From Burkholderiales bacterium PBB6 (GTDB lineage Bacteria > Pseudomonadota > Gammaproteobacteria > Burkholderiales > Burkholderiaceae_C): DNA of 64,000 bases. The translations under genes were made by a program, and so were the position numbers. The stretch is from NCBI GenBank assembly GCA_002255925.1, contig NKIH01000001.1, positions 1,240,001 to 1,304,000 of the forward strand. Reading direction: 5' to 3'. Positions 20,817 to 39,732 of the stretch are shown here, one piece after another (within the stretch, counting starts at the first letter, position 1; each line of letters begins with the position of its first letter). Below the pieces are notes generated by a model that saw nothing but the letters and a program-made list of their open reading frames with translations, searched no databases and had not been told where the DNA came from.

Positions 20817-21842
20817 TTACTGGCGCTGCTGCCAGGCCGCCAGCGCACCCCAACCTTCGTCCCACGCCGACGCCATGTCGAAAAACAGCGCGCCAGGCTC
20901 GGCCGGCCGACTGCTGTTGACCATGCGCGCGCCCTTCAGGATGAAAGTCTTGGCCTGGGCCGACAACTGCTCAAACGCGGCGATGGCGCAGCTCAACTCT
21001 TCGTCGCGCTGATCGCCTGACCACCAGGCGATCCAGCGGGCGGTCAGCTCGAAGGCCGAGCCCATCTGGCGGGTGCCTGCAAAGGCCCACGCGTGGTAGT
21101 GCGGCAGGCCTTGTTCGCGCAGGGCGGGCAGCTCTTGCAGGAAGCGCTCAGCAAAGCGCTGGACCGGGTTGTGCACCGGGCGGCGCGCCAGCAGGCCGGG
21201 CAACTCGGCACGCGCCAGCGCATGCAGCTCGGCCGCTGGCCGCTGGCGCGTGCGGTCGAGGCGGATGAACTCGGCGAACAGCGGCAGGGCCACGGCATCG
21301 GCCGGCCGCGGCGTCAGGCCGAAGGTGCCGTCGAAGTCGTCCCCCGTGAGCTCGAAGCAGCCGGCGTTGTGGAAGTAAACCAGGCGCTTGGCGGCGGCAT
21401 CCACCGACACCAGCACGATCGTGGTTTTGGTGTGGTTCTGCCGGTAGTCGGTGCCCGCCACGTCCGGCAGCCAGAAGGCGTCTGCTTCGACGCTCAGCAG
21501 CTTGCCGGCGGCCAGGTGTTCCAGGGCGTGGTCCAGCAGCGGGCGCCAGATCGTCAGCTCCTGCACGTCGAGGCCATGACGCTCCCGCAGCAGGTCATGC
21601 GAGGGCTTGAAGAAGGTCCACTGGTCGCCTTCAAAATCCACCAAGGCGCTGGCGCCCATCACGGCCAATGGCTCGAGCGCCAGGCCGTGCAGCACGCCGA
21701 TCCACAGGTCGGTGTAGCAGTTTTTCTCGGGCCAGATGGCGCCGCTCGCATGCAGGGCATGCGGCAACTGGTGCAGTGGGCTCGGGCCGGGCCATGCGCT
21801 GGCCACCCCGGCCTGCGGGGTGGTTGGTGGCGCGCCGCTCAT
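20817..21842 (-). CDS. DUF1839 family protein
   Basis: 341 residues from ATG 21842, which overlaps the stop of the upstream ligase gene (ATGA), so translation is coupled. I recognise it as DUF1839 from its pattern (CYTDLWIGVLHGLALEP, DFEGDQWTFFKP, HDLLRERHGLDVQEL, YFHNAGCFELTGDDFDG, ALREQGLPHYHAWAFA). The biochemical function is unknown. The N-terminus, with Cys, His and the fixed order of polar residues (NCYTDLW ... WTFFKP ... HTKTTI), is reminiscent of peptidase-C39-like or transglutaminase-like folds that could act on a carrier-bound thioester, but that is speculation. No signal peptide. Being in an operon with an amino acid:carrier-protein ligase implies a role in handling the aminoacyl carrier protein. 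Confidence 0.82.
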   Translation of the reverse strand: MSGAPPTTPQAGVASAWPGPSPLHQLPHALHASGAIWPEKNCYTDLWIGVLHGLALEPLAVMGASALVDFEGDQWTFFKPSHDLLRERHGLDVQELTIWRPLLDHALEHLAAGKLLSVEADAFWLPDVAGTDYRQNHTKTTIVLVSVDAAAKRLVYFHNAGCFELTGDDFDGTFGLTPRPADAVALPLFAEFIRLDRTRQRPAAELHALARAELPGLLARRPVHNPVQRFAERFLQELPALREQGLPHYHAWAFAGTRQMGSAFELTARWIAWWSGDQRDEELSCAIAAFEQLSAQAKTFILKGARMVNSSRPAEPGALFFDMASAWDEGWGALAAWQQRQ

Positions 21843-22762
21843 GACCAGAGTTGGGCACGCACCTCGGCGGGCCATTGGTTCACGTCGCAGCCGTGGGTCT
21901 TGAGCAGGGCCAGCACCACGCGCTCCAGGCCGAAGCCGAGGCAGGCGGTGTGGGCCGTGCTGCCGTCAGCGCGGCTGATGCCGAACTTGCCGGTGAAGTG
22001 CTCCTGGTGCCAGTTGAACGAGCACACAGCGGTGGGCTCGGTGGCTGACACCACCGGCACCACGATCTCGAACTTCAGGCGTTGCTCACGCTGGCTGGTG
22101 GCCATCATCTTGCCGGCACGACCAAAAAACGGGTCGTTCGCCACGTCGCTGTCGGCCGGCAGCCCCAGGCTGCGCAACAGGGCCAGACCGCGCTCCAGCC
22201 AGCTGTCGCGCCAGGCTTCCACGGCGTCCGGCGCGCCCACGCGAATGAACTCACGCATGCGGAAGGATTGCAGCCGCGTCGGCTCATCAGACGGCTCATG
22301 CCGGAAGCACCAGTTGCGGGTGGTGACGAGGCGGCCGCCCTCGGGCAGCAGGCCACTGAACATCGGGTAGACCGGGTAGCAGGCCGCAGGCAGCAGCATC
22401 AGGTCGGTGATGTCGAGAAAGCTCTCCCAGCGCTCGCCGGCACGGGCGAGGTCGGCCATCTCGCGCGCTTGCAGTCCGGCGCCGAAGAAGCTGTGGATGC
22501 TGCCGATGAGCTGCGGGAAGTTGTCGAGATAACCCATCTTCTCGATCATGGTGCGGGCCACCACGGGCGGGAAGGTCATCGCTTCGGCGCCGTCGTCTGC
22601 TGCGCCGTTCATGACCAGCGCATCAAAGCGTTCGAGGATGTCCTCGAACACCGGCCCGCGGCCGTAGGCGCCGCGAATGCCCGTGGGCAAGATCAGGCCG
22701 TGCGCCGCCAGCTCATCATGGAAGGCGTGCGGATCGTAGGCGTCAGTGGTGTGGTTCGTCAT
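21839..22762 (-). CDS. amino acid:[carrier protein] ligase (class II aaRS-like)
   Basis: 307 residues. It is a truncated class II aminoacyl-tRNA synthetase homologue, closest to atypical seryl-tRNA synthetase. Motif 2 is WCFRHEPSDEPTRLQSFRMR (from residue 151), motif 3 is GFGLERVVLALL (from residue 276). Cys128, Glu171 and Cys274 occupy the positions of the zinc ligands described for the Bradyrhizobium japonicum enzymes. There is no tRNA-binding N-terminal arm. Known homologues activate glycine or alanine with ATP and load it on the phosphopantetheine of a small carrier protein instead of tRNA. A carrier-protein gene lies 2.3 kb away, divergently. Start is 3 bases after the dehydrogenase stop. 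A true serS is present separately at 42736, so this is not the housekeeping enzyme. Which amino acid it uses cannot be read from sequence. Confidence 0.9.
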   Translation of the reverse strand: MTNHTTDAYDPHAFHDELAAHGLILPTGIRGAYGRGPVFEDILERFDALVMNGAADDGAEAMTFPPVVARTMIEKMGYLDNFPQLIGSIHSFFGAGLQAREMADLARAGERWESFLDITDLMLLPAACYPVYPMFSGLLPEGGRLVTTRNWCFRHEPSDEPTRLQSFRMREFIRVGAPDAVEAWRDSWLERGLALLRSLGLPADSDVANDPFFGRAGKMMATSQREQRLKFEIVVPVVSATEPTAVCSFNWHQEHFTGKFGISRADGSTAHTACLGFGLERVVLALLKTHGCDVNQWPAEVRAQLWS

Positions 22763-22765
22763 GGT

Positions 22766-23986
22766 TCAGTCGGCCTTGTGGACCAGCAGCAGCGATGCGC
22801 TGCGGGCGGCGATACGGCCGTTTGAAATCATCAGCGATGCCGACATGGCGTCACGGTGCGCGCGGCCCATGCTGTAGGCCGAATCGTTCTTGTAGCCCTG
22901 GATGCCGACGATCTGCAGGGCGCCCTGCACGATGCGCGGTGCAGCTTCGGAGCAGGCGGTCTTCAGGTTGTTCATCTTCAGGGCCCAGTCGACGCGGGTG
23001 AAGGCTTCCGAATCGGTGCCGGCGGCCACCTGGGCATCGAACTCCTGGGCCAGACCCTGCCAGTGGTAGCGCATGGTCTGCAGCTCCACGTTCAGCTTGG
23101 CCAGCTCGGTGGCCACCGGCGGCACCACACCGGGCGACTTGCGCGCCAGACTGCGCACATAGGCGGCGGCTTGCGCATAAGCGCCGAAAGCCAGGCCCCA
23201 CCACAGCGACGCCCAGAGGATGTGCGAATACGGCACCATCGTCAGCGCGGAGATGGCCGGGTAGCCTTCCGGCAGCACCTGCTGCACATGGGCGGAGGCC
23301 TTCAGGTCGAAGCCCGGGCTGCAGGTGCCGCGCATGCCCAGCGTGTCCCAGGTGGACATCTGCGTCAGCGTGCAATCTTCGCGGCGCACCAGCACCAGCA
23401 ATTGATCGCCCGCGGCGGCGTCGTCGGCGCGGCGGGTGGTGACCAGGATGCCGTCGGCCTGCGCACAGTACGAGCCGGTGGTGGCGGCCTTCTGCAACTC
23501 AAAGCGTTCATCCGCCTGCTTGAGTGCGCAGATGCTGCTGCGGGTGTCGCCCCAGGTGCCCACCTCCGAGGTCATCGAGCCCAGCAGCAGCTGCCGCTCG
23601 ACCAGCTCGCGCATCACCTCCTGGAAATAGGGGTCGTCCTTGCCGTGGCGCGTGATGCAGCCGACCTGGATGTAGTGCATGGCCAGCACCATGGCGCTGG
23701 CGCCGCAGTGCTGCGACAGCTGGCTGACGAGTTGCGTCAGCTCAGCCATCGTGCAGCCGGCCCCGCCGTACTGGCGCGGCACTGGGGCTGACAGCGCCCG
23801 CACGCGGCGGAGCGCGTCGACGGTTTCCTGCGGAAAACGGGCCTCGCGGTCCACGTCGGCGGCATGGGTGGCGGCCGTCTCTCGAGCGAGCTGGCGGACG
23901 CCGTCGAGCATGACGGGGAAGGGGGTGGCGGCGGTATCCATGGCGGTGTCCGTTGGCTGCATCTGGCCGGTCCGTGAGCCTTGCAT
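22766..23986 (-). CDS. acyl-CoA/acyl-carrier-protein dehydrogenase family flavoprotein
   Basis: 406 residues from ATG 23986; ATGs at 23962 and 23941 are possible. The acyl-CoA dehydrogenase fold is recognisable: RFPQETVDALRR and PVPRQYGGAG in the N-terminal helical domain, a middle beta domain (MTSEVGTWGDTRSS, WDTLGMRGTCSPGFDL), and a C-terminal helical domain ending IVGIQGY ... HRDAMSASLMISNGR. I could not assign the catalytic base. It is the first gene of the minus-strand operon, ahead of the aminoacyl carrier-protein ligase. Some family members oxidise aminoacyl groups held on carrier proteins (the prolyl-carrier-protein oxidases of pyrrole biosynthesis); by analogy this one may desaturate the tethered amino acid. 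That role is inferred from context only. Confidence 0.85.
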   Translation of the reverse strand: MQGSRTGQMQPTDTAMDTAATPFPVMLDGVRQLARETAATHAADVDREARFPQETVDALRRVRALSAPVPRQYGGAGCTMAELTQLVSQLSQHCGASAMVLAMHYIQVGCITRHGKDDPYFQEVMRELVERQLLLGSMTSEVGTWGDTRSSICALKQADERFELQKAATTGSYCAQADGILVTTRRADDAAAGDQLLVLVRREDCTLTQMSTWDTLGMRGTCSPGFDLKASAHVQQVLPEGYPAISALTMVPYSHILWASLWWGLAFGAYAQAAAYVRSLARKSPGVVPPVATELAKLNVELQTMRYHWQGLAQEFDAQVAAGTDSEAFTRVDWALKMNNLKTACSEAAPRIVQGALQIVGIQGYKNDSAYSMGRAHRDAMSASLMISNGRIAARSASLLLVHKAD

Positions 23987-24086: not shown

Positions 24087-24791
24087 ATGGACGCAATCAC
24101 CACCCTCAAAAGCCGCCTTGCCAATTGGGGGGGGTGTGCGCTTGTACAAGCTGATGTAGCGCCAAAAGCCGCAGTGCTGTGGCTGCATGGCCGCGAAATG
24201 GCACCGGAAGACGTGGTGCCGCTGCTGCAGGCCTTGCGTGCGCCGGTGTTGTGGTGCGTGCCCGCCGGGCCGGTGCAGCATGGCCAGGGGCGGCATTCCT
24301 GGTGGCCGCCCTATGACGAACTGGGCACGCCCGTTGATGACTTTGCGAGCCACCAGCCCGAGGGGCGCGCGGCGGCCTTGGCCAGCCTGCGGCCGTGGTG
24401 GGACATCTTCGGTGCGCCTGACCAGACCTTGCCGTGGATGGTGGCTGGGTTCTCGCAGGGCGGCATGTTGCTGGCGGAAGCGCTGGCGCACTGGCCCGAT
24501 GCGCCGCGGCCCGATGCACTGGCCTGGATGTCCAGCTCTCGTGTGGCGGTGGCGGACTGGCCGACCCGTGTTCCGCTGCTGGCTGACATGCCCGTGCTGG
24601 TGGCGCACGGCAACCATGATGTGGCGCCGAACCCGGCCGCCGGCGCGGCCTTGTGTGACTGGCTCACGGCGCAAGGCGCGCACTGTGATTGGCTGCCGTT
24701 TGATGGCGGCCACGAATTGCCGCTGCTGGTCTGGCGGCGACTGCAGCGCATGGCCAACGCCTTGAAACGTTCAGGCGTCAATTTTTCCTAG
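24087..24791 (+). CDS. alpha/beta serine hydrolase (phospholipase/carboxylesterase-like)
   Basis: 234 residues from ATG 24087. Catalytic elements: nucleophile elbow AGFSQGGM, Asp in HGNHDVAPN, and His in DGGHELP, with an HGR oxyanion strand (AVLWLHGREM). It matches the phospholipase/carboxylesterase (YpfH/EstB-like) family. No signal peptide, so it is cytosolic. It diverges from the dehydrogenase-ligase-DUF1839 operon (100 bases between starts) and precedes the carrier-protein gene. A thioesterase or acyl-transfer role on the carrier-bound group would fit, but small-ester hydrolysis is equally possible. Confidence 0.8.
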   Translation: MDAITTLKSRLANWGGCALVQADVAPKAAVLWLHGREMAPEDVVPLLQALRAPVLWCVPAGPVQHGQGRHSWWPPYDELGTPVDDFASHQPEGRAAALASLRPWWDIFGAPDQTLPWMVAGFSQGGMLLAEALAHWPDAPRPDALAWMSSSRVAVADWPTRVPLLADMPVLVAHGNHDVAPNPAAGAALCDWLTAQGAHCDWLPFDGGHELPLLVWRRLQRMANALKRSGVNFS

Positions 24792-24810
24792 GGGCGTCGC
24801 CGGTGTGCCA

Positions 24811-24824
24811 CTAATGTCAATTAG
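24811..24824. promoter_or_regulatory. inverted repeat, possible operator
   Basis: CTAAT GTCA ATTAG: perfect 5-base arms with a 4-base spacer, AT-rich in a GC-rich region, about 33 bases before the candidate -35. It could bind a dimeric regulator. It may also be chance. Confidence 0.3.
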
Positions 24825-24856
24825 GGGCTGCCAAGGTGGGCAGGGCGTGCCTATCA

Positions 24857-24885
24857 TTGACTCATTGAGAGCCAAATTGTAAGAA
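24857..24885 (+). promoter_or_regulatory. candidate sigma-70 promoter for carrier-protein/EPS operon
   Basis: TTGACT at 24857-24862 is a good -35; with 17-base spacing the -10 position reads TAAGAA (24880-24885), a poor match. If used, the transcript has a leader of about 210 bases before the carrier-protein ATG. Confidence 0.3.
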
Positions 24886-25070
24886 AATGTGCCAAGCCCG
24901 ACGGGCCGCCGGTTGTACCCGCCGCGAAGGTCGACGCTTGAACACTGCCACCCTCAACGTGCTGAATCCTGATGACGTTTTTGTGGCGCCCACCCGGCGC
25001 CAGTCAGAAGGTGCCAGTCCTCCGATCCAGGCCAGAGCCTGCGGGCGCCCCTTCCATCCACTGACCAAAA

Positions 25071-25091
25071 CCTGCTGAATTTTCAGGCAGG
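25071..25091 (+). promoter_or_regulatory. stem-loop covering the ribosome-binding site of the carrier-protein gene
   Basis: CCTGCTGAA (25071-25079) can pair with TTCAGGCAGG (25082-25091) with one bulged base. The 3' arm contains the purine-rich GGCAGGG that is the only plausible Shine-Dalgarno for ATG 25104. The stem could limit translation. Confidence 0.3.
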
Positions 25092-25103
25092 GTTGCTTTG
25101 ACC

Positions 25104-25361
25104 ATGACCAATTCACAAGACATCGCCCAACGTGTTCGCCAAGTGCTGGCCCAGCAGGCCCGCCTGTCGCACGACGCCCTGACGCTCGACGACACCGCTG
25201 ACCTGTACCAGGCCGGCATGACCTCCCACGCCAGTGTCAATGTGATGCTGGCGCTCGAGGCCGAGTTTGATGTCGAGTTTCCCGACCACATGCTGACGCG
25301 TGCCGTGTTCGCCAGCATCTCGGCCATCACGGCCGCCGTGGCGCGCTTGACGGACGCCTGA
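25104..25361 (+). CDS. acyl-carrier-protein-like carrier protein (aminoacyl carrier)
   Basis: 85 residues from ATG 25104; a TTG at 25098 is the only other start. It has the acidic four-helix carrier-protein pattern (LTLDDTADLYQAGM, LALEAEFDVEFPDHML, SAITAAVARL). The phosphopantetheine site reads GMTSHASVNVML with Ser41, in place of the GxDSL of fatty-acid ACP. This TS form after helix 1 is what I would expect of dedicated partners of amino acid:carrier-protein ligases. It is the likely acceptor for the ligase at 21839-22762. The GH2 gene starts 12 bases downstream, which ties the carrier to the exopolysaccharide operon. Confidence 0.88.
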   Translation: MTNSQDIAQRVRQVLAQQARLSHDALTLDDTADLYQAGMTSHASVNVMLALEAEFDVEFPDHMLTRAVFASISAITAAVARLTDA

Positions 25362-25373: not shown

Positions 25374-27905
25374 ATGGTCAATCACACGCCGCTGCCACCA
25401 CCCCACTCACAAGGACGTCTCCTGACGGACGGGTGGTGTCTGGCGTCGGGTGAAGCGCCAGCTGCAGCCGACTGGCAAGTGCTGGATGCGCCTGCCACCG
25501 TGGCACAGGCCTTGGCGCTGTCTGCCGATGACGCGGTGGCGGCTGACCTGGACGGCCGGACCTGGTGGTACCGCTGCCGCTTCGACCTGACGCCTGCCGA
25601 ACTCGACCGCGCCCTGCGCCTGGGGCTGGACGGCCTGGCCACGCAGGCCTCGGTCTGGCTGAACGGTGAGCTGCAGTTGAGCAGCAGCAGCATGTTCGTG
25701 CGGCACCAACGGGTGGTGGCCTCCAAGCAGTGGCGCCCATCGGGTAATGAACTGCTGATTCGTGTGGAGGCCTTGTCGCCCCTGCTGGCGCAGCAGCGCA
25801 AACCACGGGCGCGCTGGCGTGCCCCGATGGTGGCGCACACGGGCCTGCGCTGGTGGCGCACCAGCCTGCTCGGCCGCACGCCGGGCTGGTCACCGGCCTG
25901 GCCGCCGGTGGGCTTGACTGGTGCGGTGTGGCTGTCGCCTGCAGATGCCGACGCGCCCAGCGCATTGCAGCTCGATGCCGGTCTGTCTGAGGCGGGTGTG
26001 GGCCAGCTGTCGCTGGGTCTCCACTTGCCCGAGGGTGCCACTGAAGTGCACTTGTCAGTGACCGGCCGCGATGAGCCGTGGCAGTTCCCGCTGATGCTCA
26101 ACCAGGGCCGGTGGCAGCTGCGCACCGAGGTGCCCGGCGCCCAAGCTTGGTGGCCCCACACCCACGGCGAGCCGGTGCGCTACGCACTGGCGCTGGCCTG
26201 GCGTTCAGCCGGTGGCGAGCTTCGCCATTCGCCGCTGGGGCACACCGGTTTTCGACGTGTGGCCTTGCTGACGCAGGAGGATGGCTTCGGCATAGAAGTC
26301 AACGGCGTGCCGGTGTTTGCCCGCGGTGCCTGCTGGACGCCGATGGATGCGCGCAGCCTGCAGGCCAGCCCTACCCAGCTCGATGCCGAGTTGCAGCGCT
26401 TGCGTGCAGCCGGCATCAACATGCTGCGCCTGAGTGGCGCCACGCTGTACGAGGGTGTAGCTTTTTTTGACGCCTGCGATGCGCACGGCGTGATGGTCTG
26501 GCAAGACCTGATGTTCGCCAACATGGACTACCCCGCCACGGACGCGGCCTTCCAGGCGCAAGTGGCGGCAGAGCTCGACACGCAGTTGTCCATCTGGCGC
26601 GGTCGGCCTTGCCTGGCTGTTGTCTGCGGCAATTCTGAAGTGGCGCAGCAGGCGGCCATGTGGGGCGCTGATGCCAGCCTCTGGCAGCCGGCCTTGTTCC
26701 ATGAACAGCTGCGCGAGCGCATCACCCATGAATTGCCCGGCGTGCCGTACTGGCCTGGCAGTTCCATCGGCGGTGCCTACCCGTTCCAGCCGTCTGCCGG
26801 CACCACGTCGTATTACGGCGTGGGCGCCTACCGCCGTGGCACCCGCGACGCCACCCAGAGCGGGCTGCGCTTCGCGACCGAATGCCTGGCCCTGGCGCAG
26901 GTGCCGGGCGAGCGCGGCATGGCGCGGTTGCGTGCCTCAGCCGGCGGCACCACACCACCGGTGCACAGCCCTGCCTGGAAGGCGGGCGTGCCGCGCGACC
27001 TGGGCGCAGGCTGGGATTTCGACGACATCCGCGACCACTATGTGGAGCGGCTGTACGGCGAGTCGGTCGAGGCCCTGCGTCGCAGCCAGCCCGCGCGCCA
27101 TCTGCAGCTGGGCCGGGCCGTCGGTGCGGAACTCATCACCCGTTGTTATTCACAGTGGCGCCGGCGGGGCTCGGCCTGCAGCGGTGCGCTGGTGTGGTTC
27201 CTGCGGGATCTGCGTCCCGGCGCCGGTTGGGGCCTGATTGACGATGCCGGTGATCCCAAGCAAGCCTTTCATGCGCTGGCCGATGTGTGCCAGCCGCAGC
27301 ACCTGGGCGTGACGGACGAGGGCATGAACGGCCTTCACATCCATGCCGTGAACGACGGTGCCGAGCCCCGCCACGGCAGCTTGCAATGGCGCCTCTGGCG
27401 CGATGCTGGCGTGACCGTGGCGGAGGGCCAGCAGACCTTGTCCGTGCCTGCACGCGGCGGCATCAGCCTGGGTGTCAGCAGCCTGCTGCTCGGCTTCCTG
27501 GATGTGAACTGGGCCTTCCGGTTCGGCCCGCCACCGGCGCACGGTCTGCATCTGCGGTGGCTGGGCGAATCGGGCGAGCTGATCGCCGAGCGGGTGCACT
27601 TCATCGACCTGCCTGATGACGAGGCGCCGCGGCCGCTGGGCCATGCGGGCGATCCGGGCCTGCACGCGGTGGCTGCGCCACTAGACGACGGCAGCTGGCT
27701 GGTCACGGTGGGCAGTCGGGGAGCCGCACGCGCGGTGTATTTCGAGGCGGAGGGCTGGAGCCCGTCCGTCGAAGGTTTTCATCTGGCACCGGGCACGGCA
27801 CGCACTGTGCGCTTCACGCCCTGGCCTGGAACGTCCGCCCCCTGGCATGCCAGTGTCGGCGCCATCAATGCAATGACGACAGTGGTGGTGACCCATGCGC
27901 GATGA
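25374..27905 (+). CDS. GH2-family beta-mannosidase-like glycoside hydrolase, cytosolic
   Basis: 843 residues. N-terminal sugar-binding sandwich (WWYRCRFDL, ASVWLNGE), immunoglobulin-like domain, then a TIM barrel (EVNGVPVFARGACWTP, LRAAGINMLRLSGA, GVMVWQDLMFA). The acid/base Glu is in CGNSEVA (E422), replacing GNNE of typical beta-mannosidases. The nucleophile position is Glu503 in RFATECLALA, where mannosidases have SEFG. Both catalytic acids are therefore kept but their surroundings are altered. There is no signal peptide, so it is not placed to digest exported polysaccharide. It follows the carrier gene by 12 bases and overlaps the next glycosyltransferase start by 11. It may edit lipid-linked or carrier-linked intermediates, or act on a non-mannoside. 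Confidence 0.85.
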   Translation: MVNHTPLPPPHSQGRLLTDGWCLASGEAPAAADWQVLDAPATVAQALALSADDAVAADLDGRTWWYRCRFDLTPAELDRALRLGLDGLATQASVWLNGELQLSSSSMFVRHQRVVASKQWRPSGNELLIRVEALSPLLAQQRKPRARWRAPMVAHTGLRWWRTSLLGRTPGWSPAWPPVGLTGAVWLSPADADAPSALQLDAGLSEAGVGQLSLGLHLPEGATEVHLSVTGRDEPWQFPLMLNQGRWQLRTEVPGAQAWWPHTHGEPVRYALALAWRSAGGELRHSPLGHTGFRRVALLTQEDGFGIEVNGVPVFARGACWTPMDARSLQASPTQLDAELQRLRAAGINMLRLSGATLYEGVAFFDACDAHGVMVWQDLMFANMDYPATDAAFQAQVAAELDTQLSIWRGRPCLAVVCGNSEVAQQAAMWGADASLWQPALFHEQLRERITHELPGVPYWPGSSIGGAYPFQPSAGTTSYYGVGAYRRGTRDATQSGLRFATECLALAQVPGERGMARLRASAGGTTPPVHSPAWKAGVPRDLGAGWDFDDIRDHYVERLYGESVEALRRSQPARHLQLGRAVGAELITRCYSQWRRRGSACSGALVWFLRDLRPGAGWGLIDDAGDPKQAFHALADVCQPQHLGVTDEGMNGLHIHAVNDGAEPRHGSLQWRLWRDAGVTVAEGQQTLSVPARGGISLGVSSLLLGFLDVNWAFRFGPPPAHGLHLRWLGESGELIAERVHFIDLPDDEAPRPLGHAGDPGLHAVAAPLDDGSWLVTVGSRGAARAVYFEAEGWSPSVEGFHLAPGTARTVRFTPWPGTSAPWHASVGAINAMTTVVVTHAR

Positions 27906-29130
27906 ACAACGAAGTCAACACCGACCGTCCGACGGGCGTGCGGGCAGCGGACGCCGGCAGTTGTCGGTGCTGGGCATCCGCGGCATTCCGGCGGCGCACG
28001 GCGGCTTCGAGACCTTTGCGGCCCGGCTGGCGCCGTGGCTGGTGTCTCGCGGCTGGGACATCACCGTGTATTGCCAGGTCGACGAGATCGGCGAGCCGCA
28101 CGTCACCTGGTGGCAGGGCGTGCGCTTGGTGCACATCGGCGTCGGGCCTGATACGGCGGTCAACAGCATGCGCTTCGACTGGGCCTGCATTCGCCATGTC
28201 ATCAAGGAACGTGCGCCGCTGGTCTTGACCCTGGGCTACAACACTGCGCTGTTCGGTGCGCGCCTGCGGCTGGCCGGCGTCAAGCAGGTCATCAACATGG
28301 ACGGCATCGAGTGGTCGCGGGCCAAGTGGGGCCGCCTTGCGCGGGCCTGGCTGTACCTCAACGATTGGGGCGGCTGCCTGCTGGCCGACCACTTGCTGGC
28401 CGACCATCCGCACATCGCCCGACACCTGTCGACGCGGGTGTCGATGTCGCGCATCAGCATGATTCCGTATGGCACCGACCGCATCGACGACGGTGATGTG
28501 GGCGTGCTGTCTGCCTACGGCCTGCAACCCGGCGGCTATGTCACCTTGATCGCTCGCCCCGAGCCTGAAAACTCGGTGCTGGACATCGTGCAGGCCTTCT
28601 CCGCGCGCCGACGCGGCGTGAAGCTGGTGGTGCTGGGCAATTACCACCCGGACGTCATTCCCTTCCATGCCGAGGTGCTAGCTGCGGCGAGTGACGAGGT
28701 GCAGTTTGTCGGTGGCATCTACGAACCCGAACGCGTGGCGGCCCTGCGGCTGCACAGCCTGCTGTATGTGCACGGCCACCGCGTGGGCGGCACCAACCCG
28801 TCGTTGCTGGAAGCGATGGGTGCGGGCAACGCCGTGCTGGCCCACGACAACCGCTTCAACCGCTGGGTGGTGGGCGAGGGCGCTGCGTATTTCAACGGCC
28901 CTGAGCAGGCGGCCGAAGAACTCGATGATTTGTTGAACAATCCGGCCCGCCGTGCGCAATTGGCTGCGCACAACCGCCAGCGGGCGGCCACCACCTTCGC
29001 CTGGCCGCGGGTGCTGGAAAGTTACGAGCAGGTGTTGGCGGCCTGGCATGCGCGGGCGATCGGTCAGGCGCACGTATCTCTGCCGGCCTGGACTGGCCGG
29101 CCTGAAGGCAACCAAGGGGCAGATTCGTGA
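27895..29130 (+). CDS. DUF1972-type family 4 glycosyltransferase
   Basis: 411 residues. The N-terminal DUF1972 region (LGIRGIPAAHGGFETFAARL) characterises WchF/Cps2T-type rhamnosyltransferases of capsule and EPS pathways. The C-terminal GT-B half has RPEPENSVLDIVQAF and HGHRVGGTNPSLLEAMGAG with the conserved Glu for nucleotide-sugar binding. It adds a sugar, in relatives rhamnose, to the growing undecaprenyl-linked repeat unit on the cytosolic side. Start overlaps the GH2 stop by 11 bases; its stop overlaps the next start (GTGA). Confidence 0.88.
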   Translation: MRDEQRSQHRPSDGRAGSGRRQLSVLGIRGIPAAHGGFETFAARLAPWLVSRGWDITVYCQVDEIGEPHVTWWQGVRLVHIGVGPDTAVNSMRFDWACIRHVIKERAPLVLTLGYNTALFGARLRLAGVKQVINMDGIEWSRAKWGRLARAWLYLNDWGGCLLADHLLADHPHIARHLSTRVSMSRISMIPYGTDRIDDGDVGVLSAYGLQPGGYVTLIARPEPENSVLDIVQAFSARRRGVKLVVLGNYHPDVIPFHAEVLAAASDEVQFVGGIYEPERVAALRLHSLLYVHGHRVGGTNPSLLEAMGAGNAVLAHDNRFNRWVVGEGAAYFNGPEQAAEELDDLLNNPARRAQLAAHNRQRAATTFAWPRVLESYEQVLAAWHARAIGQAHVSLPAWTGRPEGNQGADS

Positions 29131-30287
29131 ATCAAGCTGTTGTGCAAGACCGGGCTGCTGATGTGGTGGCAGCCGTGGGGGCTGCCCTGGAGGCCCACTC
29201 CCCGCGTGCCACCGGGCTCCAACGCCTGGCCCGTGGGCTGTGGACGGCTGCCTGGGCCGGCACCGTGGCCGGCGTGCTGGTGGCGTGCAGCCATGCACCG
29301 GCCCAGCCGCCCAGCCAGAGCGTGCCCTTGCTGAACCTGCCGCCGCAAGCGGTGGCAGCCAGCGCACCGGCCGCAGCGCCCAACCCGGCGCCTGAGCCCC
29401 TGCGCTACACCTTGTCGGTGGGCGACGAAATCGACATCCGCGTGCCCGATGCACCGCAGCTCGACCAGAGCCTGAAGGTGCGCCCCGACGGCAAGATCAG
29501 CCTGGCGCTGGTCGGCACCTTGCATGCGCAGGGCCGCACGCCCGATGATTTGCAAACCGAGCTGCGTGAACGGCTGCAGGCGCTGGACGGCGCACCCGGC
29601 CAGCGCGAATACCTGCTGCAGCCCAATGATGAAATCGAGCTGAAGTTTCCCTGGTACCCGCAGCTCAATGAGGTGCTGAAGCTGCGGCCGGACGGTCGCA
29701 TCCAGGTGCAGATGGTCGGCACCTTGCTGGCTCAGGGGCTGAGCCCGGAAGAGCTGCAGGGGCAGTTGCGCCAGCGCTATGCCCGCTACCTCAAGCAGCC
29801 CGATCTGTCGGTCATCGTGCGCAGCGTCACCACCCAGAACGTGCGGGTGCCGGGCGGCACCGGCCGCGCCGGTCTGGCGCAGTTGCAGCCGGTGGTGGTG
29901 GCGCGCGGCTTTGCGGTGCAGCAGGTGTTCGTGGGCGGTGAGGTGGGCAAGCCCGGTGTGCTGCCGTTCCGGCCCGGCATGTCGCTGCTGCAGGCACTGG
30001 TGGAAGCCGGTGGCCAGCTGCCCACGGGCGACATGGGCCAGCTGGTGCTGCTGCGCCGCGCACCAGACAACACCGCCCAGGTGCTGCACCCGGCGCTGGC
30101 CGACGACTACCTGAAGTCGCCTGACCGCGACATCGTGCTGCAGCCCTTTGACGTGGTGCTGCTGCCCAAGAGTGAACCGGCTTCGCTGGCGGACCGTCTG
30201 AACCTCTATGTGTTCAACCTGTTCCCGCCGCTGAAAAACAGCTCCGTCGGCTTTGGCTACAGCCTGCGCCCCAACGCCACCAACTGA
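29127..30287 (+). CDS. Wza-like polysaccharide export outer-membrane lipoprotein with duplicated export domain
   Basis: 386 residues from GTG 29127. A hydrophobic stretch ends in the lipobox VLVAC (around residue 54), after an unusually long, partly positive N-terminal region; GTGs further in would give a shorter signal. Two tandem Poly_export modules follow: YTLSVGDEIDIRVP ... LKVRPDGKISLALVGTL and YLLQPNDEIELKFP ... LKLRPDGRIQVQMVGTL. Then a SLBB module (VFVGGEVGKPGVLPFRPGM) and a C-terminal segment. Wza-type octamers form the periplasmic and outer-membrane export channel. The next gene encodes the inner-membrane partner. Confidence 0.9.
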   Translation: MNQAVVQDRAADVVAAVGAALEAHSPRATGLQRLARGLWTAAWAGTVAGVLVACSHAPAQPPSQSVPLLNLPPQAVAASAPAAAPNPAPEPLRYTLSVGDEIDIRVPDAPQLDQSLKVRPDGKISLALVGTLHAQGRTPDDLQTELRERLQALDGAPGQREYLLQPNDEIELKFPWYPQLNEVLKLRPDGRIQVQMVGTLLAQGLSPEELQGQLRQRYARYLKQPDLSVIVRSVTTQNVRVPGGTGRAGLAQLQPVVVARGFAVQQVFVGGEVGKPGVLPFRPGMSLLQALVEAGGQLPTGDMGQLVLLRRAPDNTAQVLHPALADDYLKSPDRDIVLQPFDVVLLPKSEPASLADRLNLYVFNLFPPLKNSSVGFGYSLRPNATN

Positions 30288-31712: not shown

Positions 31713-31717
31713 CCCGA

Positions 31718-32320
31718 ATGGCCACCTCCATGTCCAAGCTTGACTCCTTGATGATCCAGCGCACCGCGCTTGCCCTGCGCGAGCGTGTCGGCGACGAGCC
31801 CTGCGTGGTGCTGGTCAGCAGCGCTGCAGACGGTGAAGGCAAGTCGCTGGTGGCTCGCGCCCTGGCCCGCGCCCTGGCGGTGCAGACGCCCGGACGCGTC
31901 GGCCTGGTGAGCCTGCAGCCTGAGGTGAGCGCACCGGCGGGGCCGGGCTGGCGCGAGCTGCTGGAAAGCGGCCAGGTGCCCGCCGGCACCGACACCGACG
32001 GCTTGTGGGAGCTGCCTGCCGGCGGCGGTGCCTTGGCGGCGTCGTCTGACGTTGCGCTGTTCCGCATCGATGCGGTGGCCCAGGCCGTGCAGGCGCTGCG
32101 TGCCCACCGCGCGCTGGTGCTGGTGGATGGCCCGAGCTTGGCGGCGTGTGGCGCGCTGGTGCCGCAGGTTGATCAGATCTTGCTGGTGGTGAACAGCCAG
32201 CGCACCACCGACCGTGCGCTGTCGAAGGCCATGCAGGCGGCGAATGTGGCGCCCGAGCGCGTGGCCGGTGTGGTGCTCAACCGCCAGGCCAGCGTGCCCG
32301 GCTGGCTGCGCGGCACCTGA
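31718..32320 (+). CDS. CpsD/BY-kinase-like P-loop ATPase lacking a tyrosine tail
   Basis: 200 residues, 5 bases after the chain-length gene. The Walker A variant is SAADGEGKSLVARALA near residues 34-49; Walker A' is weak (VGLVSLQPE), and Walker B is ALVLVDGPSL. VDQILLVVNSQRTTDRAL and VAGVVLNR match the tyrosine-kinase (CpsD/Wzc-C) family. The C-terminus ends SVPGWLRGT with no tyrosine cluster, so autophosphorylation-controlled cycling as in Wzc is unlikely in the usual form. It probably works with the GumC-like protein in polymer-length control. Its stop overlaps the next ATG (TGATG). Confidence 0.82.
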   Translation: MATSMSKLDSLMIQRTALALRERVGDEPCVVLVSSAADGEGKSLVARALARALAVQTPGRVGLVSLQPEVSAPAGPGWRELLESGQVPAGTDTDGLWELPAGGGALAASSDVALFRIDAVAQAVQALRAHRALVLVDGPSLAACGALVPQVDQILLVVNSQRTTDRALSKAMQAANVAPERVAGVVLNRQASVPGWLRGT

Positions 32321-33873
32321 TGCCCCTGCCTTTGCCTCTGCCACGTTCCATGAGCACCCCCGCGATGAGCGCCCACACCGAGCACGACGCCCCCCGCGGT
32401 CTGCAGCCCGGTGCCATGCTGATCGGGGTGGCGATGCTGTGCATCGGTGCGCTGGCGGTGGCCATGGCGGTGGCCGGGGGCAGCACGCTGCAGCTCGGCG
32501 CCGCGTTGGTGGCGCTGGCCGGTGGTGCCTGGGTGCTGTGGACGCGGCAGGTGCAGCTGTGGCTGGTGGCCGGGCTGTTTTTTCTGGCGCCGGTGGACAT
32601 CAGCAAGGCCATCGTGGCGCCGGAGGGGCAGTACTACTCGCCCGGCCTTTACCTCACGCCTGCGCACGCCGTGTTGCTGCTGCTGGCGTTTTGGTGGGCG
32701 GCCAGCCGGCGCCTGGTGGCGGGCCGCTGGCCACCATTGACCGGGCTGGACATGGCTGCTTTGGGCTGGGCCGGCTACCTGCTGCTGCGCTCGTTGGGCT
32801 CCGCCCAGGGTGAGCTGGCGGTGGCCAGCGGCGTGGCCTACGCGCTGGCCGTGCTGGGGTTCTACGTCGCCTCGCATGCCTTGCAATCCCCGGGCGCCTT
32901 GCGCATCGCCTTGCAGGCCAGTGTGGCCGTGCTCTTGATCGAAGCGGTGTACGTGGGGGCGCAATTGCTCACCCGCCAGGCCTTGCCCTTGCCGGGCGCC
33001 AAGGGCTTGACCGAAGTGGCCGCGCTCACCTTTGGCGGCGAAGGCCTGGCGTTCCGGCCAACCGGGTTTTTTGGCCACCCGAATTCGCTGGCACATCATT
33101 TGTCCTTGCTGCTGCCGCCCCTGATGGCGCTGGCGCTGGTCGGCCGCACCTGGCTGCCTGTACGGGTCTGGTGGGTCACGGTGGCAACACTGCTGGTGGC
33201 CGGGGTGATGCAGGTGCTGACCCTGTCGCGCAGCGGCTGGGTGGCGCTGGTGGTGGGCGGGCTGGTCGTGGTGGTGGGCTTGGTGCGCTGCCGGCTGATG
33301 CCGATGCGCGCCGTGTGGCGGCTGGTGGCCGCCGCGGTGGCGGCTGTGGTGATGGTGGTGATCCTGTATCCGCAAGCCGTGCTGCGGCTGACCGCGCCGG
33401 ATGACCGCTCGCTGGAGTCGCGCGGGCTGCTCAACGGCCAGGCGATGACGATGATCACCGACCGGCCTTGGCTCGGCGTGGGCTTCGGTGAATACAACCG
33501 CGCCTCCAGCCAGGTTGTCGGGCCGCAGTTTGCACAGGTGTCAGAGGACTACCAGAAGCAGCTGCGGACGCTGGTGGTGCACAACCATTACCTGCTGCTT
33601 GCGGCTGAGCTGGGTGTGCCTGCGATGTTCTTTTTCCTCGGTCTGCTGGCCTGCATGATTGTCTTGCCATGGCCACTGCGCCGCTGGCGTGGTGATCCGG
33701 CTTCGCTGGCCCTGGCCATCGGCCTGAGCGGCTCGCTGGTCGGGCAGCTGCTGTTCCTCACCGCCGACAATTTTTACGCCGAGACCCGCGTCTTCATGCT
33801 GTGGCTGACGGCAGGTGTGTTGCAGGCGGTGGTGCTTCGGCAGCGGCCTGCGCCGCGTGGGGGCGCCGCATGA
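32320..33873 (+). CDS. O-antigen polymerase/ligase-like membrane protein (Wzy type)
   Basis: 517 residues with about 11-12 hydrophobic segments. The Wzy_C / O-antigen ligase region has GFFGHPNSLAHHLSL followed by a periplasmic loop (LNGQAMTMITDRPWLGVGFGEYN) and HNHYLLLAAELG, the HxHxxxLxxxxExG-like motif of polymerases and ligases. It should polymerise repeat units in the periplasm. ATG 32350 is an alternative start. Position between the chain-length genes and flippase supports polymerase over ligase. Confidence 0.85.
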   Translation: MPLPLPLPRSMSTPAMSAHTEHDAPRGLQPGAMLIGVAMLCIGALAVAMAVAGGSTLQLGAALVALAGGAWVLWTRQVQLWLVAGLFFLAPVDISKAIVAPEGQYYSPGLYLTPAHAVLLLLAFWWAASRRLVAGRWPPLTGLDMAALGWAGYLLLRSLGSAQGELAVASGVAYALAVLGFYVASHALQSPGALRIALQASVAVLLIEAVYVGAQLLTRQALPLPGAKGLTEVAALTFGGEGLAFRPTGFFGHPNSLAHHLSLLLPPLMALALVGRTWLPVRVWWVTVATLLVAGVMQVLTLSRSGWVALVVGGLVVVVGLVRCRLMPMRAVWRLVAAAVAAVVMVVILYPQAVLRLTAPDDRSLESRGLLNGQAMTMITDRPWLGVGFGEYNRASSQVVGPQFAQVSEDYQKQLRTLVVHNHYLLLAAELGVPAMFFFLGLLACMIVLPWPLRRWRGDPASLALAIGLSGSLVGQLLFLTADNFYAETRVFMLWLTAGVLQAVVLRQRPAPRGGAA

Positions 33874-37421: not shown

Positions 37422-37442
37422 CCGCGGCCGGAGCCTCATCCC

Positions 37443-38129
37443 ATGACCACCTCCCATCCTGAAGCCTCACAGCCCGCTGCGCCCCCGGCGGCCAAGACCG
37501 CTGCGTCATCGCTGGACCGCCATTACGACGAGCGCCGCTGGCGCGATACCCGCGCGTTGATCCGCACGGACCTCGACCGTCTCTGCCGCCACCTCCAGCG
37601 GCCGGATTCCTTCAGTCACCGCCTCTACTTCTCGCTGCTGCCTGGCTTCCAGGCGCTGCTCTGGCACCGTATTTCGCGCTGGTGCCTGTTGAACAACTGG
37701 CGCTGGGCGGCCCGGCTGATCTCCTTGTTCGCGATGTACCTGACGCGGGCTGAATTGCCGCCCAACTCGCAGATTGGCCACTCGGCCTTGATTGCGCACG
37801 CCACGGGCGTCTACATCTTCGGCAAGGTGGGCGCCCGCATGATCATCCAGGGCAGCGGCGGCTTTGGTGGTGGCTTCGGGCCTGAGGACATCGGCGGCGG
37901 CCCCGGTTATTCCGTGTCGGGTGACGACGTGAACCTGGCGTTCGGTGCGCGCGTGCTGGGCCCGGTGCGCGTGGGCAATGGCGTGAAGGTGGGGCCGGGC
38001 GCGCTGGTGACCTTCGATGTGCCGGACGGTGCGCTGGTGATGTGGGCCCGACCGCGCGTGATTCTGGATGGCGCCGGGCCGGTGACGCCATCGGCACGGC
38101 CGGAAGAGCCGCCCACGGGCGCGGCATGA
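37443..38129 (+). CDS. left-handed beta-helix acyltransferase (serine acetyltransferase-like)
   Basis: 228 residues. A helical N-terminal half (YFSLLPGFQALLWHRISRW) resembles the serine O-acetyltransferase entry domain. The hexapeptide-repeat half has IGHSALIAHATGVYIFGKVG, where the His of AHATG aligns with the SAT catalytic His, and later VLGPVRVGNGVKVGPGALV. A glycine-rich insertion (GGFGGGFGPEDIGGGPGY) interrupts the helix. In EPS loci such proteins usually acetylate sugars rather than serine. Whether the acyl donor is acetyl-CoA or the locus's own carrier protein is open. Its stop overlaps the next ATG. Confidence 0.8.
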   Translation: MTTSHPEASQPAAPPAAKTAASSLDRHYDERRWRDTRALIRTDLDRLCRHLQRPDSFSHRLYFSLLPGFQALLWHRISRWCLLNNWRWAARLISLFAMYLTRAELPPNSQIGHSALIAHATGVYIFGKVGARMIIQGSGGFGGGFGPEDIGGGPGYSVSGDDVNLAFGARVLGPVRVGNGVKVGPGALVTFDVPDGALVMWARPRVILDGAGPVTPSARPEEPPTGAA

Positions 38130-39265
38130 ACGCACCCGCTCGTTTTCGCCTCGGGGTCGATGCCCACACGGTCGACGGCCTGTTCCAGGGCAGTCGCTCC
38201 CACCTGCTGGGCTTGTACCGGGAGGTGATTCCGCGCCTGCCCGAGGTGGACTTCGTGTTTTTGCTCGCCAACCCCGAGGCCTTGCGCAACGAAGCCGAGG
38301 CCTTCCGCGCGCCCAATGTGCAGTGCGAGGCCATGCCGCACCGCAACGGCTTGTGGCGCCTGGGTTGGCAGTTGGCGGCAGCCCAGCGCAGCCACCGGCT
38401 CGATTTGCTGCATGTGCAGTACCGGGGCCCGGTGTGGCCAGCCGGGCCGCTGGCCTGCACGATCCACGACACGCTTTACGAAACCCATCCGCAGTTCTTC
38501 ACGCCGGGCTTCGTGCGCATGGCCCGCTGGACGGCGCGCCGCACCGTGCGGCAATCACGCCTGATGTTCACGGTCAGCCAGTTCTCGCGCGGCGAAATTG
38601 CCCGGCACTACGACTGGCCCGCCGAGCGCGTGGCCGTGACCGGCAATGGCGTGAACCTGCAGCGCTTTCACCCGGCACCGGGTGGCGAAGCTGAGCTGGC
38701 GGCCCTGGGCCTGGCGCCCGGTGGCTACCTGCTCACCGTGGGCCGCATCGAGCCGCGCAAGAACCACCTCGGCCTGCTGCGCGCCTATGCCTTGCTGCCG
38801 GCGGCCGAGCGTTTGTCGCTGGTGATCGTCGGCCAGCGCGACGCCGCTGTCTTCGAGCAAGTGCAAGCCGAGGTGCAGCGCCTGGGCCTGGACGGACAGG
38901 TGCGCTTTCTCGACCGGGTGGGCGATCAGGCCTTGCCGGCGTTGTTGCGCCATGCCCGCGCCGTGGTGTACCCGAGCTTTGCCGAGGGCTTCGGCATGCC
39001 AGTGGCCGAGGCGATGGCCAGCGGCGTGCCGGTGGTCACCAGCACGGGCACTGCACTTGCCGAAGTGGCGGGTGACGTGGCGCTGGTGGCCGACCCGAGC
39101 CGCCCGGCCGACATCGCCGCCCAGGTCTTGCGGCTGCTGCGTGAGCCCGATCTGGCGCGTGAATTGGCGGCCCGCGGGCCGGCCCAGGCCGCCCAGTTCA
39201 GCTGGCAGGCTTCGGCCGATGTGTTCGTGAATGCGCTGAAGGCCTACATTCAACGCCCATGTTGA
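38126..39265 (+). CDS. family 4 glycosyltransferase
   Basis: 379 residues from ATG 38126, overlapping the acyltransferase stop (ATGA). GT-B features: LGVDAHTVDGLFQGSRSHLL, FTVSQFSRGEIARHY, TVGRIEPRKNHLGLLRAYALL and YPSFAEGFGMPVAEAMASGVP with EX7E. It matches the mannosyltransferase-like GT4 group common in EPS clusters. The acceptor and sugar are unknown. Confidence 0.9.
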   Translation: MNAPARFRLGVDAHTVDGLFQGSRSHLLGLYREVIPRLPEVDFVFLLANPEALRNEAEAFRAPNVQCEAMPHRNGLWRLGWQLAAAQRSHRLDLLHVQYRGPVWPAGPLACTIHDTLYETHPQFFTPGFVRMARWTARRTVRQSRLMFTVSQFSRGEIARHYDWPAERVAVTGNGVNLQRFHPAPGGEAELAALGLAPGGYLLTVGRIEPRKNHLGLLRAYALLPAAERLSLVIVGQRDAAVFEQVQAEVQRLGLDGQVRFLDRVGDQALPALLRHARAVVYPSFAEGFGMPVAEAMASGVPVVTSTGTALAEVAGDVALVADPSRPADIAAQVLRLLREPDLARELAARGPAQAAQFSWQASADVFVNALKAYIQRPC

Positions 39266-39732
39266 AAGAACTGGATCCAACCACCGTGGGCGTGACGATC
39301 GGCCTGTCGCTGACCGTGGCGTTGGTGGTGCTGGCCGTGCGGCTGTGGGCGCTGAATCGCCTGCGCGGTGACCGGCAGGCCGAGGCCCGCCAGAAGCAGG
39401 AGCGACTGCGGGCCTTGCTGGGCGCATGCCGCGCGCTGGCGGGCTCGTTCACGCCGGCTGCCGCTGCGGACAGCCGCCAGATGGAAGAAGCCCTGGCCGA
39501 GGTGCTGCTGTTTGGTGATCTGCCCCAGGTGGCGTTGGCTGCAGAGGCGGCACGGGAGCTGGCCGCTGGCCAAATGCCTGATGTACAGCCGCTGGTGGCC
39601 TTGCTGCGCGCCGATGTGCGGGGCCTGCTGGGCCTGGCGCCGTGGCCGGACGACCTGGTGCTGCCGCCGGCCGGGCCGGGCAGGGTGGGCCGCCAAGGCA
39701 ATGGCCGCAGCCGGGGGCTGGACGAGGGCTGA
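39259..39732 (+). CDS. small membrane-anchored protein of unknown function
   Basis: 157 residues overlapping the glycosyltransferase end by 7 bases. One membrane helix near residues 9-27 (VGVTIGLSLTVALVVLAV) is followed by a basic stretch and a helical cytosolic region (MEEALAEVLLFGDLPQVALAAEAARELAAG). No known family recognised. As the last gene of the EPS transcript it may be a local regulator or simply a passenger. Its stop codon lies in a weak 6-base hairpin (39728-39744) shared with the convergent gene. Confidence 0.65.
   Translation: MLKELDPTTVGVTIGLSLTVALVVLAVRLWALNRLRGDRQAEARQKQERLRALLGACRALAGSFTPAAAADSRQMEEALAEVLLFGDLPQVALAAEAARELAAGQMPDVQPLVALLRADVRGLLGLAPWPDDLVLPPAGPGRVGRQGNGRSRGLDEG

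What the first reader, a model, noticed from the sequence alone, without database searches (positions are those of the whole stretch)
20817..39732. Amino acid:carrier-protein activation module built into an exopolysaccharide locus
Seen: a truncated class II synthetase homologue with the Cys/Glu/Cys zinc triad, DUF1839 and a dehydrogenase form one operon; the carrier protein starts the divergent transcript that runs, with gaps of 12 bases or overlaps, into GH2, glycosyltransferase, Wza, Wzz, ATPase, polymerase and flippase genes (one 312-base leader precedes the carrier). Known: homologous ligases load Gly or Ala on small carrier proteins, physiological purpose unknown. Inference: the aminoacyl group, perhaps after oxidation, is transferred to the polysaccharide or its lipid-linked precursor, a Gram-negative parallel to carrier-based D-alanylation by DltA/DltC. 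The LbH acyltransferase (37443-38129) or DUF1839 are candidates for the transfer step.
Basis: partly seen in the sequence, partly recalled or inferred. Interest (0 to 1): 0.85.

Follow-up and report, generated by a model that had tools for sequence, protein, structure and literature searches.

The report
Carrier-bound amino acid cassette beside polysaccharide genes
A conserved set of genes loads an amino acid onto a small carrier protein and probably moves it onto a sugar; here it runs straight into genes that build an outer polysaccharide, which may give this long-orphaned enzyme family a purpose.

Summary
Ligase (NF005479) and carrier (NF005480) pass curated cut-offs. DUF1839, ligase and an acyl-CoA-dehydrogenase-like protein form a tight minus-strand operon; carrier, GH2, glycosyltransferase, Wza, Wzz, ATPase, Wzy and Wzx follow with gaps of 12 bases or less. 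The real unit is a cassette: carrier, dehydrogenase-like protein, ligase, DUF1839, GH2, often with a fused double hydrolase and a holo-ACP synthase. In 398 sampled phylum genomes, all 16 with DUF1839 have the ligase directly beside it. The polysaccharide link is real but not obligatory: Wza lies within 20 kb of the ligase in 7 of 37 genomes, 0.9 expected; Azospirillum and some Rhizobium cassettes stand alone. The dehydrogenase-like protein lacks both canonical catalytic Glu; GH2 keeps both and shows no signal peptide. Best reading: a carrier-bound, probably oxidised amino acid is transferred in the cytosol by DUF1839 to a sugar. Amino acid and acceptor remain unknown.

The parts
20817..21842 (-). 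DUF1839 protein (ORF open from 21875): papain-like, proposed carrier-protein-dependent acyltransferase
   Evidence: PF08893 296.6 bits; model pLDDT 91.4; Foldseek: only CtaG and AziU3/U2 chains at E<=1e-3; C53 in 31 of 33, H148 and H169 in 33 of 33
21839..22762 (-). amino acid:carrier protein ligase (class II aaRS-like)
   Evidence: NF005479 405.5 bits over cut-off 357; closest solved structure bll0957
22766..23962 (-). acyl-CoA-dehydrogenase-fold protein lacking both canonical catalytic Glu
   Evidence: PF02771/PF00441; alignment with ACADs of the same genome; model pLDDT 91.6, Foldseek ACADs and DszC/TdsC
24087..24791 (+). small alpha/beta hydrolase, present in near relatives
   Evidence: tblastn hits in relatives; homologue in L042 matches PF02230; no Pfam match of its own
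24792..25103 (+). 312-base gap where relatives carry a holo-ACP synthase gene; one promoter-like site at 24828-24857
25104..25361 (+). carrier protein, 85 aa, phosphopantetheine Ser41
   Evidence: PF00550; NF005480 102.8 bits over cut-off 72; S41 35 of 35
25374..27905 (+). GH2 beta-mannosidase-like protein of the cassette; E422 and E503 kept; no hydrophobic N-terminal stretch
27895..29130 (+). family 4 glycosyltransferase
   Evidence: best model Cps2T-type rhamnosyltransferase, 147.7 bits, under its cut-off of 500
29127..30287 (+). Wza-type export protein
   Evidence: PF02563
30300..31712 (+). Wzz-type chain length determinant
   Evidence: PF02706
31718..32320 (+). ATPase related to polysaccharide tyrosine kinases
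   Evidence: no Pfam match; TIGR03018 45.5 bits, under its cut-off
32320..33873 (+). Wzy-type polymerase/ligase
   Evidence: PF04932
33870..35303 (+). Wzx-type flippase; start assumed (ORF open from 33801)
   Evidence: PF01943
35300..36442 (+). glycosyltransferase (GT4 type); start assumed
   Evidence: PF00534
36258..37421 (+). glycosyltransferase family 2 ORF; true start not settled
   Evidence: PF00535
37443..38129 (+). LbH acetyltransferase, EpsC/CysE-like; not part of the cassette
   Evidence: scores under cut-off
38126..39265 (+). glycosyltransferase (GT4 type); start assumed
   Evidence: PF00534
39259..39732 (+). unknown 157-aa protein
   Evidence: no match

Best explanation
The cassette is a carrier-protein-tethered amino acid modification and transfer module. 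(1) The holo-ACP synthase of the cell, the only PF01648 match found in this genome, arms Ser41 of the carrier (inferred). (2) The ligase activates a small amino acid (Gly or Ala are recalled for characterised relatives) and loads it as a thioester (family membership shown; loading inferred). (3) The ACAD-fold protein oxidises or oxygenates the carrier-bound aminoacyl group by non-canonical chemistry (inferred). (4) DUF1839, a papain-like enzyme with the fold of CtaG and AziU3/U2, takes the acyl group from the carrier through Cys53 and a His and passes it to an amine or hydroxyl (fold and residues shown; reaction inferred). (5) The acceptor is most likely a sugar in the cytosol: in this genome a lipid-linked repeat unit that Wzx flips and Wzy polymerises. 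The cytosolic GH2 trims, releases or transfers the glycosidic part (inferred). In mechanism this is closest to the butirosin side-chain pathway (mostly recalled), rebuilt with an aaRS-type ligase.
For: DUF1839 was found in 16 of 398 phylum genomes; all 16 carry the ligase over cut-off and one DUF1839 copy lies within about 130 bases of it (Fisher p 2e-21, not corrected for kinship). In 39 non-redundant fetched loci, chosen and not random, ACAD occurs in 36 and DUF1839 in 33 (L047 only a fragment); GH2 occurs in 31 of those 33 and in 0 of the 6 without DUF1839. The only PDB chains at E<=1e-3 to the DUF1839 model are 11 from CtaG and AziU3/U2; CtaG is proposed as a peptidyl transferase between two carrier proteins (PMC6772006, passages). 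C53 is kept in 31 of 33; the 2 copies without it come from genomes with a second DUF1839 copy that keeps it. GH2 E422 and E503 are kept in 23 of 23. Polysaccharide link: Wza within 20 kb in 7 of 37 ligase genomes, 0.91 expected, P 3e-5; a polysaccharide gene in 14 of 28 cassette stretches against 1 of 20 control stretches; a flippase fused to the double hydrolase beside the cassette in L054 and, by profile, in Rhizobium sp. NLR16a L088; ligase, carrier and PPTase among glycosyltransferases and a flippase in a Tsukamurella plasmid.
Against: Half of the cassette stretches show no polysaccharide gene (14 of 28), nor do the stretches from two Azospirillum plasmids, R. leguminosarum Vaf10 and Mycetohabitans (gene tables). 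In Caballeronia grimmiae the only ones are pel genes about 11.5 kb from the carrier gene. Ligase genomes without DUF1839 show no such link: 0 of 12 by Wza, 0 of 3 stretches. Variovorax sp. dw_308 keeps ligase, carrier and AcpS beside the same polysaccharide operon, but no DUF1839 was found in its genome (no positive control in that call) and no ACAD or GH2 in the 20.9-kb stretch. Tsukamurella likewise lacks all three in the stretch. So DUF1839 is not needed wherever carrier and polysaccharide genes meet. TM-scores to CtaG/AziU3 are moderate (0.47-0.59) at 10-19% identity. No sequence evidence names the amino acid or the acceptor.
Confidence: 0.5

Rival explanations
1. The cassette is an autonomous pathway for a small glycosylated or aminoacylated metabolite. 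Its place next to polysaccharide genes in Ideonella is recent and incidental, or it only shares a flippase and glycosyltransferases.
For: Stand-alone cassettes in Azospirillum, R. leguminosarum Vaf10, Mycetohabitans and 14 of 28 stretches; minimal ligase-carrier-ACAD sets without GH2 or DUF1839 (L057, L059); Priestia plasmid set with an ATP-grasp protein that has a weak L-amino-acid-ligase match, a transporter, AlaP and alanine racemase; the polysaccharide-neighbour state changes at least 12 times on the ligase tree.
Against: Enrichment of Wza and other polysaccharide genes over background; unbroken gene run in the window; the same order carrier-GH2-(hydrolase)-GT4-Wza in I. paludis and Ideonella sp. 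MAG2.
Confidence: 0.3
2. DUF1839 is a thioesterase or editing hydrolase that frees the oxidised amino acid; nothing is transferred to a sugar.
For: Papain-like enzymes often hydrolyse (recalled; PMC10318531 passages also list acyltransferases); minimal ligase-carrier-ACAD sets exist without DUF1839.
Against: Its fold neighbours belong to carrier-protein-dependent assembly (CtaG in PMC6772006; AziU3 recalled); DUF1839 goes with GH2 in 31 of 33 loci, which points to a sugar substrate.
Confidence: 0.12
3. One reading: the LbH acyltransferase at 37443-38129 moves the aminoacyl group.
For: It lies in the same gene run by spacing.
Against: Its best matches, under cut-off, are serine/EpsC acetyltransferases, which use acetyl-CoA (recalled); no homologue was found in the relatives' stretches searched with it.
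Confidence: 0.03

Closest known systems
Amino acid:[carrier protein] ligases of Bradyrhizobium and Agrobacterium (bll0957; Mocibob et al. 2010 and 2013, not held, recalled)
   Same: Ligase and carrier are members by curated models; bll0957 is the closest solved structure.
   Different: A 2022 review says the biological role is unknown (PMC9437257, passages); here the ligase sits in a larger cassette with DUF1839, GH2 and, in this genome, polysaccharide genes.
CtaG (closthioamide) and AziU3/U2 (azinomycin)
   Same: Fold of DUF1839, the only PDB matches at E<=1e-3; CtaG is proposed to transfer an acyl group between carrier proteins (PMC6772006, passages).
   Different: 10-19% identity; a link of either to glycans or to aaRS-type ligases is not known to me; the part of AziU3/U2 in aziridine formation is recalled.
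Butirosin side-chain pathway (BtrI, BtrJ, BtrK, BtrO, BtrH)
   Same: Amino acid on a carrier, flavin-dependent oxidation, transfer to a sugar by a papain-like enzyme; BtrH is named an ACP:aminoglycoside acyltransferase in PMC10318531 (passages), the rest is recalled.
   Different: Different ligase type and oxidase; the acceptor is a free aminoglycoside (recalled).
DltA/DltC D-alanylation and AlmEFG lipid A glycylation (both recalled)
   Same: Carrier-bound amino acid delivered to an envelope glycan or lipid.
   Different: NRPS-type adenylating enzymes and membrane transferases, no DUF1839 or GH2 (recalled). The carrier here matches DltC only weakly (19.2 bits, cut-off 68).
Exosortase A (XrtA) polysaccharide loci with hydrolase 1 and hydrolase 2
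   Same: The double hydrolase of the cassette is a fusion related to TIGR03101 plus TIGR03100 in 6 of 6 proteins scanned. That XrtA loci also have a carrier and a ligase is recalled; the 2006 XrtA paper has no such terms (PMC1569441).
   Different: All matches are below the curated cut-offs, and the hydrolase was not found in the window.

Membership tests
Amino acid:[carrier protein] ligase (NF005479) | Score over curated cut-off | tested here: met
   405.5 against 357 bits
Amino acid:[carrier protein] ligase (NF005479) | Class II core with Cys/Glu/Cys triad, no separate tRNA-binding domain | tested here: met
   C128, E171, C274 invariant in 48; 307 aa aligned along residues 22-303 to bll0957; zinc role recalled
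Amino acid:[carrier protein] ligase (NF005479) | Loads an amino acid on the carrier | not testable with these tools
   needs assay
DUF1839 (PF08893) | Pfam score and papain-like Cys plus His residues | tested here: met
   296.6 bits; C53 31 of 33, H148 and H169 33 of 33; family described as papain-like with a C(T/S)H triad in PMC10318531 (passages); which His is catalytic was not tested
Acyl-CoA dehydrogenase | ACAD fold | tested here: met
Acyl-CoA dehydrogenase | Catalytic Glu at the MCAD or IVD position | tested here: not met
   I/V in 44 of 44 at the first and S/A/C/T in 44 of 44 at the second, aligned with L101, L102, L105 (Glu at first) and L104 (Glu at second); site names recalled
GH2 glycosidase | Two catalytic Glu | tested here: met
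   E422 and E503 in 23 of 23; similarity to beta-mannosidases; their catalytic role by recalled motif
Wzx/Wzy-dependent exopolysaccharide locus | Wza, Wzz, Wzy, Wzx and glycosyltransferases in one run | tested here: met
Dlt/Alm-type aminoacylation | NRPS-type adenylation enzyme and membrane acyltransferase in the set | tested here: not met
   the ligase is class II aaRS-type; no membrane acyltransferase family among the Pfam matches of the run; the 157-aa protein has no match

The most novel reading that the evidence does not exclude
A tRNA-synthetase-derived ligase, a carrier protein, a flavoenzyme and a papain-like transferase (DUF1839) form a Gram-negative pathway that places an oxidised amino acid on the cytosolic, lipid-linked sugar repeat unit of an exopolysaccharide, with GH2 as the sugar-processing partner. 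This would be a new chemistry of polysaccharide decoration and would give aa:CP ligases a biological role.
Probability: 0.33. Interest if true: 0.82.

Novelty: new variant of a known kind. Interest (0 to 1): 0.62.

Why it matters
Amino acid:carrier protein ligases have solved structures but, according to a 2022 review, no known role (PMC9437257, passages). Tying them to DUF1839, GH2, an ACAD-fold protein and, in several lineages, polysaccharide assembly genes yields concrete testable substrates. Assigning DUF1839 to the CtaG/AziU3 fold class turns a domain of unknown function into a candidate acyltransferase. If confirmed, it would add an aaRS-based route to amino acid decoration of bacterial glycans.

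Tried and rejected
The idea that some cassettes belong to the Burkholderia Bep cluster (a CRP-type regulator lies near L050) was checked in PMC3584217 by term search: 'acyl carrier', 'dehydrogenase' and three neighbouring locus tags do not occur; dropped. The idea that the 312-base gap is a known RNA element: no Rfam match. A canonical acyl-CoA dehydrogenase: both Glu sites missing (a first attempt picked antisense frames for most of the comparison genes and was discarded). A 363-aa neighbour group 'c7' overlaps the ligase on the other strand and was taken as a spurious frame. The simple gene caller missed or mis-framed some genes (for example 21 ligases of 33 loci in its ligase group), so counts are taken from the profile search instead. 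Literature: searches found no paper; others gave listings in which no title or abstract start showed a link between the ligase and exopolysaccharide; of these I read passages of one (PMC9437257). The only paper holding the term DUF1839 suggests from genomic context that it might process glycans at the cell wall in an acyl-CoA-dependent manner (PMC10318531, passages). Most subscription journals are not held, so this is no proof of absence. Rows left out: one search did not include the short or truncated loci L043, L047, L063, L067 and L070, nor plasmid loci; L070 and the plasmid loci were scanned later.


Full report
Observation. The ligase passes the curated model NF005479 (405.5 bits, cut-off 357) and the carrier NF005480 (102.8 bits, cut-off 72). 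DUF1839 matches PF08893. On the minus strand ACAD, ligase and DUF1839 follow with 3 bases and a possible ATGA overlap (coordinates). On the plus strand carrier, GH2, glycosyltransferase, Wza, Wzz, ATPase, Wzy and Wzx run with gaps of at most 12 bases. Correction: a small alpha/beta hydrolase gene lies upstream of the carrier on the same strand, and the 312-base gap is where relatives have a holo-ACP synthase. The only PF01648 match found in this genome is about 234 kb from the ligase. The genome shares its genus with G076, whose contig length equals that of the Ideonella paludis contig; that the window is an Ideonella is inferred from this.

The unit. Neighbourhoods of the ligase were taken from same-family genomes (10 of 120 have it), phylum genomes (44 of 398 at E<=0.001, 28 over cut-off), named contigs (12 loci) and named plasmids (59 records with DUF1839 and 94 with ligase matches, of which I fetched 9). 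In most loci outside the window's family the order is carrier, ACAD, ligase, DUF1839, GH2 on one strand; in most of the window's family, carrier and GH2 run opposite to ACAD, ligase and DUF1839. Of 42 tabulated loci three are second fetches, leaving 39: carrier in 36, ACAD in 36, DUF1839 in 33 (L047 only a fragment), GH2 in 31, double hydrolase in 21, holo-ACP synthase in 17. These loci were chosen, not random. In the phylum sample, which I did not choose, DUF1839 occurs in 16 of 398 genomes and all 16 have the ligase next to it; 12 of the 28 over-cut-off ligase genomes have no DUF1839. Pairwise identities of the five proteins correlate (Spearman 0.44-0.86 over 15 to 44 loci), as expected for joint inheritance.

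DUF1839. The model is confident (mean pLDDT 91.4, pTM 0.89). Of 350,542 PDB chains only 11 match at E<=1e-3, all from AziU3/U2 or CtaG entries, with TM-scores 0.47-0.59 and 10-19% identity. By sequence alone there was no PDB match. PMC6772006 (passages read) calls CtaG a peptidyl transferase that would move an acyl group between two carrier proteins. PMC10318531 (passages) places DUF1839 in the papain-like superfamily with a C(T/S)H triad, and BtrH, an ACP:aminoglycoside acyltransferase, in the same superfamily. C53 is present in 31 of 33, and H148 and H169 in 33 of 33. The two copies without Cys (L016, L025) come from genomes that carry a second DUF1839 copy with the Cys (L073, L053).

ACAD-like protein and GH2. 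The first has the ACAD fold, with sequence matches that include nitrososynthases and DszC-type monooxygenases besides dehydrogenases. Aligned with ACADs of the same genome, the Glu of the YEG motif is Ile or Val in 44 of 44, and the alternative Glu site is Ser, Ala, Cys or Thr in 44 of 44. It is therefore not a standard dehydrogenase; dehydrogenation by another base or oxygenation are both open. GH2 is beta-mannosidase-like and keeps E422 and E503 in 23 of 23. A crude hydropathy check shows no signal-like N-terminus in the window or in the relatives checked, whose starts were guessed, so it is probably an active cytosolic enzyme.

Link to polysaccharides. All 7 are among the 25 genomes that I counted as having DUF1839; 0 of the 12 others. 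With profiles built without seeds from the locus under test, 14 of 28 cassette stretches of about 20 kb hold a glycosyltransferase, flippase, Wza or initiating transferase, against 1 of 20 control stretches from 20 of the same genomes and 0 of 3 minimal loci. The seeds came mostly from cassette loci, which favours the cassette stretches. Among ten further loci, polysaccharide genes appear in four: Rhizobium NLR16a, Tsukamurella, Cupriavidus metallidurans (an initiating transferase) and C. grimmiae (a match overlapping pelF). None appear in two Azospirillum, Mycetohabitans, Priestia, R. leguminosarum Vaf10 and L070. Pfam scans of selected neighbours show glycosyltransferases, Wzy and Wza beside L051, ManC, a VpsR-domain regulator and an initiating transferase beside L050, and a glycosyltransferase, a flippase and a sugar-associated ATP-grasp beside L058. 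Ten proteins from six loci of the window's family gave no glycosyltransferase, flippase or export protein. In L054 the double hydrolase is fused to a flippase, and the same ORF in L088 matches the flippase profile. A Tsukamurella plasmid has ligase, carrier and PPTase among glycosyltransferases and a flippase. Priestia has a different setting. Variovorax dw_308 keeps only ligase, carrier and AcpS beside the polysaccharide operon, and no DUF1839 was found in its genome. Its ligase nests among DUF1839-associated ones, so the rest was probably lost. On the ligase tree the polysaccharide-neighbour state changes at least 12 times (17 of 41 rows positive by my coding; quick tree with long branches), so the association is repeated but unstable.

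Reading. The best-supported account is a carrier-bound amino acid pathway with DUF1839 as transferase and a sugar as acceptor; in Ideonella the acceptor may be the repeat unit of the exopolysaccharide. Shown: gene content, conservation, fold, residues, enrichment. Inferred: loading, oxidation, transfer and acceptor. It works like butirosin side-chain assembly (mostly recalled) and resembles Dlt or Alm aminoacylation only in outline. The main rival is an autonomous metabolite pathway that is only sometimes beside polysaccharide genes.

Novelty. The ligase and carrier are known families and the polysaccharide genes are ordinary. New here, as far as I could search, are the cassette as a unit, the CtaG/AziU3-like fold of DUF1839, the missing Glu sites of the ACAD-like protein and the repeated polysaccharide setting. 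PMC10318531 had already guessed from context that DUF1839 processes glycans. Searches showed no held paper that states the link with the ligase, judged mostly from listings.

Noticed in passing
17802-19589: A chemotaxis methyltransferase CheR gene (333 bits, below its cut-off of 435) and a GGDEF diguanylate cyclase gene lie beside the cassette, also in other Ideonella; c-di-GMP control of the polysaccharide is possible.
   Followed up: no
L016/L073 and L025/L053: In two genomes of the same order the in-operon DUF1839 has lost its Cys while a second copy elsewhere keeps it.
   Followed up: partly
L054 1460-4768; L088 19880-23191: A MOP-type flippase is fused to the double alpha/beta hydrolase next to the cassette.
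   Followed up: partly
L093 805-16692: A Priestia plasmid carries AcpS, carrier, ACAD and ligase with an ATP-grasp gene, AlaP, alanine racemase and a gene annotated D-Ala-D-Ala ligase: perhaps an alanine-related natural product with self-protection.
   Followed up: no
L069 232-10909: Variovorax sp. dw_308 keeps only ligase, carrier and AcpS beside the same polysaccharide operon; no DUF1839 was found in its genome.
   Followed up: yes
L064 10862-11929 and the stretch before the GH2 gene: Ideonella sp. MAG2 has a DUF1839 frame with an inner stop and only a weak double-hydrolase match (177 bits); sequencing error or decay not told apart.
   Followed up: no
L065: Piscinibacter (Ideonella) sakaiensis 201-F6, the plastic degrader (recalled), carries the five cassette genes followed by glycosyltransferase, Wza and Wzz genes.
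   Followed up: no
hits H97-H100: Apilactobacillus kunkeei plasmids carry very distant ligase relatives (about 22% identity) annotated as hypothetical.
   Followed up: no
39259-39732: Unknown 157-aa protein at the end of the gene run, no Pfam or NCBIfam match.
   Followed up: no
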